A DNA stretch of 64,000 nt from Owenia fusiformis (Eukaryota; Annelida; Polychaeta; Sabellida; Oweniidae). The translations under genes and the position numbers were made by a program. Below are positions 42,201 through 45,200 of the stretch, in pieces (position 1 is the first letter of the stretch; every line of letters begins with the position of its first letter). The stretch lies in the NCBI GenBank assembly GCA_903813345.2, contig CAIIXF020000003.1, positions 14,338,931 to 14,402,930 on the forward strand, given 5' to 3'. The notes under the pieces were generated by a model. The model was not told the origin of the DNA, ran no database searches, and worked only from the letters and a program-made list of their open reading frames with translations.

Positions 42201-45200
42201 GTCACCAGTAGCTCTCCTGCAGGGCTCATTGTGAGACCCAACAACTGTGATAACCCTCTGCAAACTATATCATGTTGATGAGTACCATTAGTGTTGTACA
42301 GGGTGTCAAAAAACAACGGCACCCCCCTCTACAGCAAAATGTACTTAATGTTACATAGTGTGTCATATCCCATTTTAAAGACAATTTAATTTTGGAGTTA
42401 ATTGAGGAATTTCAGCTTTGTACGATATAATTTTACAGATTTATAGCCGATTGTTAGTAGGTGGTACGGCCACCACTTGCTGCTCGAAAAGCAGCCAATC
42501 TGGATGATTATGATTTCAATGAAGATTCGAAGAAAGGTTTAGCATTGCGTAATCCTTTAAGCATTTTCCGCATATTCTTCAGAAATACATCCTTACTGTG
42601 TCCATTTTCAAGAGGCCTCCTATCCATCAGTTCTCCTACCCTGTCTTTCACAATTGAACATATATGCTCAGGGTAGTTGAGATCTGGGCTATTTCCTACA
42701 TATTAATAATTTCCAAGATTTGACCTTAAACCAGGAACAAAGTAGCAAACAAAGTACTGAAGTAGCAAACTTCGAAACAATGTAACTTTTTTAGTTTAAA
42801 GTTTTATCAAATGAAATTTGATGAGTAACTCCAGAATTACATTATCTTTCAAATGAGATATGACACGCCATGTAACATTAAGGAGTTTTTGCTGTGGAGG
42901 GGGGTGTCGTTGTTTTTTGACACCCTGTAGATGCTTATTTTGTTAGTAGACTCATCGGTCAAAGCCAGTTTGCCATCATTTGTTAGGGTAACATGAATAA
43001 AGCTTTTTTGCAAGACCATTTTTAGCTTTTTGTTTCGATCATATATACATGTATTGGATCCACGTCCTGCTGTTGCTACATAATCACCTTCTGGAGTAAC
43101 TACAATATCTAAAAGACTTCTTGGATGTAGTGGAGTGCTTGTTATATTTGGCTCACACAGTGGTATGACAGCAGTATCTTTCTCGTCTTCTTCATATAGC
43201 TCTGTAGACAATATTCCAAATTCGACTCCATCATCGCTACATTTTCCCTCAATGAAGTTAAAGTGAATTTTTGTGTTGAATGTTGTCTTTGGTTCTTTGG
43301 ACCATTCCTCAGATTTCCGGTTTACCTGCTCTATTAGGTCTGCTATTTCTACAGGATGGCCATGTTCTACCATGGTACAGTACCTGTTGACTTGGCATTC
43401 AATGATGCCCTTCTGAAGCTCCAGGTACCCAAGGTGAGACACGGCCTGTTTGACATTAGATTCCTTTTCCTTTGTCACCCGCTTTGTGTATGACTTGTAC
43501 TTTTCGCGAAGAGCTTTGATCAGTATATTCATATCATTATATATTTCATCTGTTACATTTTCAGCATTCTGCTCCAGTTGACTTTTATAGGCCTGTGTAT
43601 CTTGAATGGACTGTTCATAAATGTCCATGAGTGCTTTTCCCTGTGTTATAAGAGCACCAATAGGTTTCATGTTATTGGCAGCTATCTCTTTGATATCTTC
43701 ACAGGAATGACCAGAGTGTTTGATTGGGTAGCATTGATGACAAATTGGCATCTTATCATCCTTACAGTACAGCTCAATAGGCTTGGTAGGGTGTAGTTGA
43801 CAGTATATTGTACGCTCTTTTATTGACTGAAGTGCAGTTTCGAGATCTTGGACACTATCTCCTGTAAGATTGATTATTTTATGACCTTTCAACAGCGTAT
43901 CATGTGTTTTACGGCACCTGACACACAATCTTTTGTTGCAGTCTAGACATCTTATTTTGGCTGGTGTGATTTCATGTGATTCGAGACAAGAATCACATTC
44001 TTGTTTTGGAGTCTGCTGACTGTCTTTAAAAGCATCAGCCAGGAATGAAATTGTTGGGCTCACCTTGAACTCCCATGCCCCTTCTTGTGGTATGGTACAT
44101 ACATGACGGCATTCTGGGCAGTTGAAAGATCCTCCTTGTAGTTGACCCTTCTGTATAAGGCTATCTAGGCATTTCAAGCAGTAAGCATGCATACATGGCA
44201 ATGCCCTTGGTTCAGTCAGAATGTCCTGGCATATTCCACATGTCAGAGCAGCTTTATAACGATCATCTGTAAAGGACGCCATTTTTGGAATAAAACTGCA
44301 ATCATCCAATAAAACTGTTGTGTACCCACAAAATATATATGTTCATGTATTAAAATCCTCAACTGATCTTTGTGATGTTCTGTATTATCTACAAGGTCAT
44401 AAACTCTTCTAATATAATAACCTATTCTGTTAAAACATCCTCTGAAACACACGCATAAATAATATATATTTTATGTTAAACAGTTCTCAGAACTGGCTTT
44501 ATATCAGATATCTATATTGTAAGCATTGTGAATGATACATGGTCACCCTAACTGTTTCCCAATAGAATTCCAAAGAAAAACCAATATAAATGTTTGCTAG
44601 TTGCTCATAGTAAGTAAATAATTAAGATAGTGGCAGGTGTTATTCATATATAAATAGTAAGTTAAACCATCAGCCAGCAGTTGGATTTGTGAATGCTACC
44701 TAGGAAAGTTCATATGAGATAAATATTGTTAACATCAATTGAAAATCACTTAAGGTTTTATATTTGATATGTTAGGGGTTGTGTCAAAACATTACAACTA
44801 AGTTTGGAAGAAATGCCAAGGGTTCATTTCTTTATGATTGCATTGTTCTTTAAGATTTTATTTTGAGGGTTACATAGATTTAGTTATAATTAATGAGAAT
44901 AATTTTGGTGTTGATATTTGACCCTGCCTCTTTGTCAATTTTTAACAAAAAATAGTTATTGCTTGAGCAAGGTAGACTGACTAAATTGTTCACCTCTGGT
45001 ATATTCATATAATGATGATGTGCTATATCTGGGATATACTTTAAAGATAAACTACTGATATAATATCAATATGATAACTATCATATGCAAGAGAGTTTTA
45101 TTTATGTATCAATCTATGTATAGTTAAGAACAGCCCTGCCCCCTGCGAGAATGGGTTTCATACCTAAGATAAGACAATGTATTAAGTGAGACACAAATTC

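What the first reader, a model, noticed from the sequence alone, without database searches (positions are those of the whole stretch)
42297..42929. Young-looking transposon insertion breaks an otherwise intact TRIM-NHL gene
The element sits inside the propeller coding region with a TA duplication. Removing it with one TA restores one continuous frame of 1890 nt, and no other stop or frameshift is present in the host gene. Either the allele is a recent loss-of-function, or the locus is polymorphic, or a truncated RING/B-box/coiled-coil protein is tolerated. The element's own arms differ at roughly 15 percent of positions, so the source family is older than this insertion.
Basis: partly seen in the sequence, partly recalled or inferred. 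Interest (0 to 1): 0.75.

Follow-up and report, generated by a model that had tools for sequence, protein, structure and literature searches.

The report
Recent transposon insertion disrupting a TRIM-NHL gene
A short "jumping gene" that no longer codes for its own enzyme has landed, fairly recently, in one member of a large family of TRIM-NHL (ubiquitin-ligase-like) genes and cut off most of its propeller domain; this is a clean but ordinary example of gene disruption by a DNA transposon.

Summary
Window 42299-42927 is a 629-bp element with inverted-repeat arms and a TA target duplication. It sits in the codon of Tyr452 of a single-exon TRIM-NHL gene on the minus strand; the empty site is an uninterrupted 629-codon frame. 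The element is an internal-deletion derivative of a Tc1/mariner-like family: 40 copies were scored of 332 candidates, and it keeps a decayed transposase C-terminus. A 1530-bp relative carries a 372-codon open transposase frame. The window copy has 5 private changes in 629 bp, and two other copies at unrelated sites differ at only 2 of 628, so the family moved recently. The host is one of at least 94 loci related to its RING/B-box part and had been under purifying selection (dN/dS 0.22-0.32 against six paralogues). Precise removal as a GT-AG, GC-AG or AT-AC intron is excluded by the junction sequence. Most likely this is a recent knockout of one member of a large family, giving a 477-aa protein without most of its propeller if expressed. 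Whether it is fixed or polymorphic cannot be told here. Ordinary; interest low.

The parts
42299..42927 (-). Non-autonomous Tc1/mariner-like element, 629 bp; strand given is that of its transposase remnant, the same as the host gene
42297..42298 (.). TA target-site duplication, left copy
42928..42929 (.). TA target-site duplication, right copy
42299..42414 (+). Left terminal inverted repeat (CAGGGTGTC...)
   Evidence: 18 of 116 positions differ from the right arm
42812..42927 (-). Right terminal inverted repeat
42457..42717 (-). Decayed transposase C-terminal remnant; open 64-codon stretch at 42511-42702
   Evidence: 64-codon stretch, no stop; 67% identity to residues 285-371 of the L022 transposase, 2 TAA stops
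42715..42716 (.). Approximate internal-deletion junction relative to the 1530-bp relative (about 900 bp lost)
   Evidence: element 1-418 matches L022 669-1086, 417-629 matches L022 1987-2198
42928..44282 (-). Host TRIM-NHL gene, 5' part: ATG at 44282, RING and B-box, to codon 452
41762..42298 (-). Host TRIM-NHL gene, 3' part: remaining propeller (NHL repeat) and stop
42849..44282 (-). Reading frame as it now stands: 477 codons (452 native + 25 from the element) and stop

Best explanation
A short non-autonomous Tc1/mariner-like transposon (an internal-deletion derivative, presumably amplified by a transposase supplied in trans) inserted by cut-and-paste at a TA in the codon of Tyr452 of a single-exon TRIM-NHL gene. 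Shown: element boundaries, TA duplication, repeat family, transposase remnant, a longer relative with an open transposase frame, uninterrupted host frame at the empty site, intact paralogues, low private divergence. Inferred: transposition by that kind of transposase, loss of function of this locus and, if it is transcribed, a 477-aa RING/B-box protein that lacks most of its propeller. It is probably tolerated because the gene belongs to a large family; it may still be segregating.
For: TA on both sides in 25 of 28 copies examined. 221 ends against 0 control. 1530-bp relative L022 with matching TA-flanked ends and a 372-codon stop-free frame (369 from its first ATG), in which D166, D263 and E301 fit a DD37E triad (triad assigned by hand). 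The window copy has 5 private changes in 629 bp against 22 subfamily members (FastTree terminal branch 0.012). L005 and L006 differ at 2 of 628 with unrelated flanks, so movement was recent. Host dN 0.17-0.18 and dS 0.56-0.77 (two methods) against the six nearest paralogues L010-L014 and L016, all with uninterrupted single frames. 66 of 94 related loci have an uninterrupted frame of at least 560 codons (counted).
Against: Transposase family assignment rests partly on motif: Pfam finds only a sub-threshold HTH_Tnp_Tc3_2 match (23.2 bits, cut-off 31.5) and no DDE domain; the PDB searches found no transposase. No expression or population data. L022 is 83-91% identical to the element over its two parts, so it is not the direct parent. 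The window copy's grouping with its nearest copy L002 has almost no support (0.10; the clade with L055 has 0.94), so the direct source is unknown.
Confidence: 0.92

Rival explanations
1. The element behaves as an intron: it is spliced out and a working full-length TRIM-NHL protein is made.
For: One GT...AG pair near the element's ends (AGG|GTGTCA, 4 bases in; TGTAG|AGG, 30 bases from the other end) would keep the frame open into the propeller, adding 12 residues (641 aa). In the stretch scanned, 24 GT-AG pairs in all keep the frame.
Against: The five rotations of the 631-nt segment whose removal gives exactly the empty site begin and end TA..TG, AC..GT, CA..TA, AG..AC or GG..CA (read by hand from the junctions printed); none is GT-AG, GC-AG or AT-AC. 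The best frame-keeping donor scores -1.5 bits on a recalled metazoan matrix; better donors (2.7 and 1.9 bits) lie deeper in the element and are not among the frame-keeping pairs. The six nearest paralogues have one uninterrupted frame.
Confidence: 0.04
2. A sub-question of the best explanation: the insertion is fixed and the locus is already a pseudogene in the species.
For: No second allele without the element was found: with the 3' flank, the best other match in the assembly is 80% identical. Other related loci are broken (L029, L034, L035).
Against: The assembly may hold a single haplotype, so absence says little. No other lesion in 1890 nt, though that has probability 0.08-0.30 under neutrality at 5 private changes.
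Confidence: 0.35
3. The truncated 477-aa RING/B-box protein is a functional product, for example a dominant-negative or a propeller-less TRIM.
For: 16 of 94 related loci have open frames of only 330-470 codons without stops; two inspected, L030 and L031, show no propeller match in about 1.5 kb downstream, so propeller-less versions may occur in the family.
Against: Too little time has passed for selection to be visible; the 25-residue tail comes from transposon sequence; no expression data. L030 and L031 could have the propeller in a further exon.
Confidence: 0.08

Closest known systems
Tc1/mariner DD37E elements (Mosquito/ITmD37E, TRT, L18 groups; PMC10379824, abstract and passages seen)
   Same: TA target duplication, inverted ends, a transposase frame of similar length (about 340, not above 370 aa, in that paper for Mosquito); 37 residues between second D and E in the relative L022.
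   Different: Which DD37E group, if any, was not tested by phylogeny. That paper reports no Mosquito elements in annelids and mostly short ends (19-51 bp; range to 203), against about 116 bp here.
[quoted passage not shown]
   Same: Short, no intact coding frame, inverted ends, TA duplication, many copies with one layout.
   Different: Retains a recognisable transposase C-terminal piece, so the derivation is visible.
TRIM-NHL proteins (TRIM2, TRIM3, TRIM71, Drosophila Brat and Thin)
   Same: RING, B-box and NHL propeller; best PDB matches of the 3' part are TRIM71, Thin, TRIM3 and TRIM2.
   Different: Single-exon gene in a family with at least 94 loci related to its RING/B-box part; this copy is interrupted.

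Membership tests
Tc1/mariner superfamily (non-autonomous member) | TA target-site duplication | tested here: met
   25 of 28 copies
Tc1/mariner superfamily (non-autonomous member) | Terminal inverted repeats shared with a transposase-bearing element | tested here: met
   (L022 669-2198)
Tc1/mariner superfamily (non-autonomous member) | DDE/D transposase of IS630/Tc1/mariner type in the autonomous relative | tested here: inconclusive
   D166/D263/E301 identical in two transposases of this genome (triad assigned by hand from recalled Tc1 motifs); only a sub-threshold Pfam HTH_Tnp_Tc3_2 match; no PDB transposase match
DD37E Mosquito, TRT or L18 group | Monophyly with that group | not tested
   No reference transposases at hand
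MITE | Short, non-coding, inverted ends, multicopy with uniform length | tested here: met
   (36 of 40 scored copies match positions 1-629)
TRIM-NHL | RING and B-box | tested here: met
   zf-C3HC4 33.4 bits, zf-B_box 41.6 bits, both above cut-off
TRIM-NHL | Coiled coil | tested here: inconclusive
   TRIM_CC 14.9 bits, cut-off 30
TRIM-NHL | NHL propeller | tested here: met
   NHL 51.9 bits, cut-off 20; TRIM71 E 1.6e-42
Intron-generating element (introner) | Canonical splice dinucleotides at the exact junctions | tested here: not met
   Five rotations read by hand from the junctions printed

The most novel reading that the evidence does not exclude
The element supplies in-frame cryptic splice sites near both its ends (AGG|GTGTCA and TGTAG|AGG), so that the gene still makes a near-full-length protein with 12 added residues: a transposon in the act of becoming an imperfect intron.
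Probability: 0.03. Interest if true: 0.5.

Novelty: new member of a known kind. Interest (0 to 1): 0.15.

Why it matters
It is a clean natural disruption, young by its private divergence, in a large TRIM family, and it comes with evidence that a Tc1/mariner-like family has moved recently in this genome. Beyond that it is ordinary: transposons breaking members of large gene families are expected.

Tried and rejected
Rejected: chance repeat (221 against control 0). Rejected: precise intron by canonical dinucleotides (junctions). Not supported: relaxed selection clearly special to this gene. Three-taxon branch dN/dS for the window gene was 0.25-0.36, against 0.27-0.36 for L011 and 0.17-0.21 for L016 and L010; in the part after the insertion it was 0.35-0.52, against 0.55 for L011 but 0.20-0.43 for L016 and L010, so it is on the high side without being extreme. 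The window gene has the second-highest number of changes at sites invariant in the other nine (18, against 15 for L011 and 37 for L033); this may only reflect long branches. Pfam found nothing in the 64-aa remnant; the PDB gave no transposase. Rfam: no match in the window at gathering scores.

Literature: six searches ran. In the listings (8 of 238 papers listed; 8 of 62; 3 of 3; 6 of 8) I saw no title on this locus or on disruption of a TRIM-NHL gene by such an element. Passages were read in two papers only. No claim of absence from print is made.

No structure was predicted: the joined host protein is not contiguous in the window, and the transposase comes from loci outside that tool's stated list.

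Sampling: of 40 scored copies I used 27 (the window copy included) plus one found (L055). 13 of the 40 were not fetched. The five copies at about 85% (L050-L054) were left out of the private-change count. The spanning-frame test used 25 of 28 copies; L042, L045 and L047 had no clean TA at one end. The arm comparison used the 12 other copies of exactly 629 bp. Three of 97 rows were second pieces of loci already listed and were dropped to give 94, which is also the number of candidates that call scored (of 321), so it is a lower bound.

Full report
OBSERVATION. The element runs from 42299 to 42927 (629 bp), with TA at 42297-42298 and 42928-42929. Its 118-nt arms (duplication included) are 85% complementary. 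Joining the flanks with one TA gives an uninterrupted minus-strand frame of 629 codons plus stop (1890 nt), starting at ATG 44282. The insertion lies in the codon of Tyr452. As it stands, the frame reads 25 codons into the element and stops: 477 aa.

THE HOST. The 5' part carries RING and B-box domains above Pfam cut-offs and a sub-threshold coiled coil; the 3' part carries an NHL repeat and matches the propellers of TRIM71, Thin, TRIM3 and TRIM2 in the PDB. In the same genome the 5' part finds 94 loci, the window included (97 rows, 3 of them second pieces); 66 of 94 have uninterrupted frames of at least 560 codons and 9 have stops inside (counted). The search scored 94 of 321 candidates, so 94 is a lower bound, and the weaker matches (about 30% identity) may not all be TRIM-NHL genes. 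The nearest paralogues are 72-74% identical and uninterrupted (L010-L014 and L016), with dN 0.17-0.18 and dS 0.56-0.77 by two methods. The locus was therefore kept by purifying selection for most of its separate history. Branch estimates show no relaxation clearly special to this gene, although in the part after the insertion its ratio (0.35-0.52) is above most of those of two of the three comparison genes (0.20-0.43). Broken relatives exist: L029, L034 and L035 show frame breaks (3 of 7 inspected, the seven chosen mostly because they looked short or split).

THE ELEMENT. 40 copies were scored out of 332 candidates. The 27-base end pattern (one base free) occurs 221 times, against 0 for the reversed control. 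In 25 of 28 copies examined the element is flanked by TA on both sides. Of these 25, only the window copy lies in a frame open across the whole tested 199 codons; the next are 130 and 111. On its minus strand the element keeps a decayed transposase C-terminus. L022 holds a 1530-bp relative with the same ends, TA on both sides, and a 372-codon stop-free frame. Element positions 1-418 match its left part at 83% and 417-629 its right part at 91%, so the 629-bp form is an internal-deletion derivative lacking about 900 bp. Of the 40 scored copies 36 match positions 1-629 throughout, at 84 to 100% identity, so the deletion preceded the amplification. L022 and a second family, L023 (380-codon frame, 63% identity), share D166, D263 and E301, with 37 residues between the last two. 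This fits a DD37E Tc1/mariner signature, assigned by comparison with recalled motifs; Pfam supports it only weakly.

AGE. Against 22 subfamily members the window copy has 5 private changes in 629 bp; FastTree gives a terminal branch of 0.012. It is 14 of 629 from its nearest full-length copy, and 15 of 574 from L055. The true post-insertion divergence is at most about this, because the source copy may have carried some of these changes. L005 and L006 differ at 2 of 628 with unrelated flanks, which shows very recent movement of the family. At 5 private changes the neutral expectation over the host frame is about 15 substitutions and 0.6 nonsense changes; with assumed indel ratios of 0.05-0.15 the chance of no lesion is 0.30 to 0.08, and over the 95% range of the private count (1.6 to 11.7) it runs from 0.68 to below 0.01. 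The intact frame therefore fits recency but does not by itself separate a young fixed loss from a segregating allele.

MECHANISM. Most likely this is cut-and-paste insertion by a transposase acting in trans (inferred), breaking one TRIM-NHL locus of a large family. If the gene is transcribed, the product keeps RING and B-box but ends early in the propeller. Splicing out precisely is excluded for canonical dinucleotides: the five equivalent 631-nt segments begin and end TA..TG, AC..GT, CA..TA, AG..AC and GG..CA (read by hand from the junctions). An imprecise in-frame GT-AG pair exists (12 residues added), but its donor is weak on a recalled matrix.

ORGANISM (inferred, not shown). The genome has 498 Mb in 525 contigs, of which contigs C1-C12 sum to about 477 Mb (lengths). 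This resembles the annelid Owenia fusiformis, reported as 505.8 Mb with 12 chromosome-scale scaffolds (PMC9977687, passages seen). No sequence test of identity was made.

VERDICT. It is an ordinary case of gene disruption by a non-autonomous DNA transposon, and whether it is polymorphic remains open.

Noticed in passing
window 40414-41250: A nested palindromic foldback element (arm pairs of 193, 190 and 38 nt, 86-92% complementary; outer ends TCACACCCGGTGATCGT) lies about 0.5 kb beyond the host gene's stop codon.
   Followed up: partly
L022 (G000:C11:26448900-26452300), element 669-2198: A 1530-bp transposon with matching ends and an open 372-codon transposase frame; among the 110 scored matches (of 1001 candidates) the only uninterrupted full-length one of this family.
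   Followed up: partly
L023 and L026: A second related transposon family (ends CAGGGTGTCAAATAAGTCCC, the first 40 bases alike in both copies): L023 has an open 380-codon transposase frame, L026 a near-identical one split into frames of 189 and 220 codons.
   Followed up: no
L030 and L031: Related TRIM loci with RING/B-box frames and no propeller match in about 1.5 kb downstream.
   Followed up: partly
window 10152-11511, 17847-18353, 19132-20269, 27767-28299, 47108-47544 and others: Many long minisatellite arrays in the window (69 rows); the one at 17847-18353 is 99% uniform (39-bp unit) and lies in open frames on both strands.
   Followed up: no
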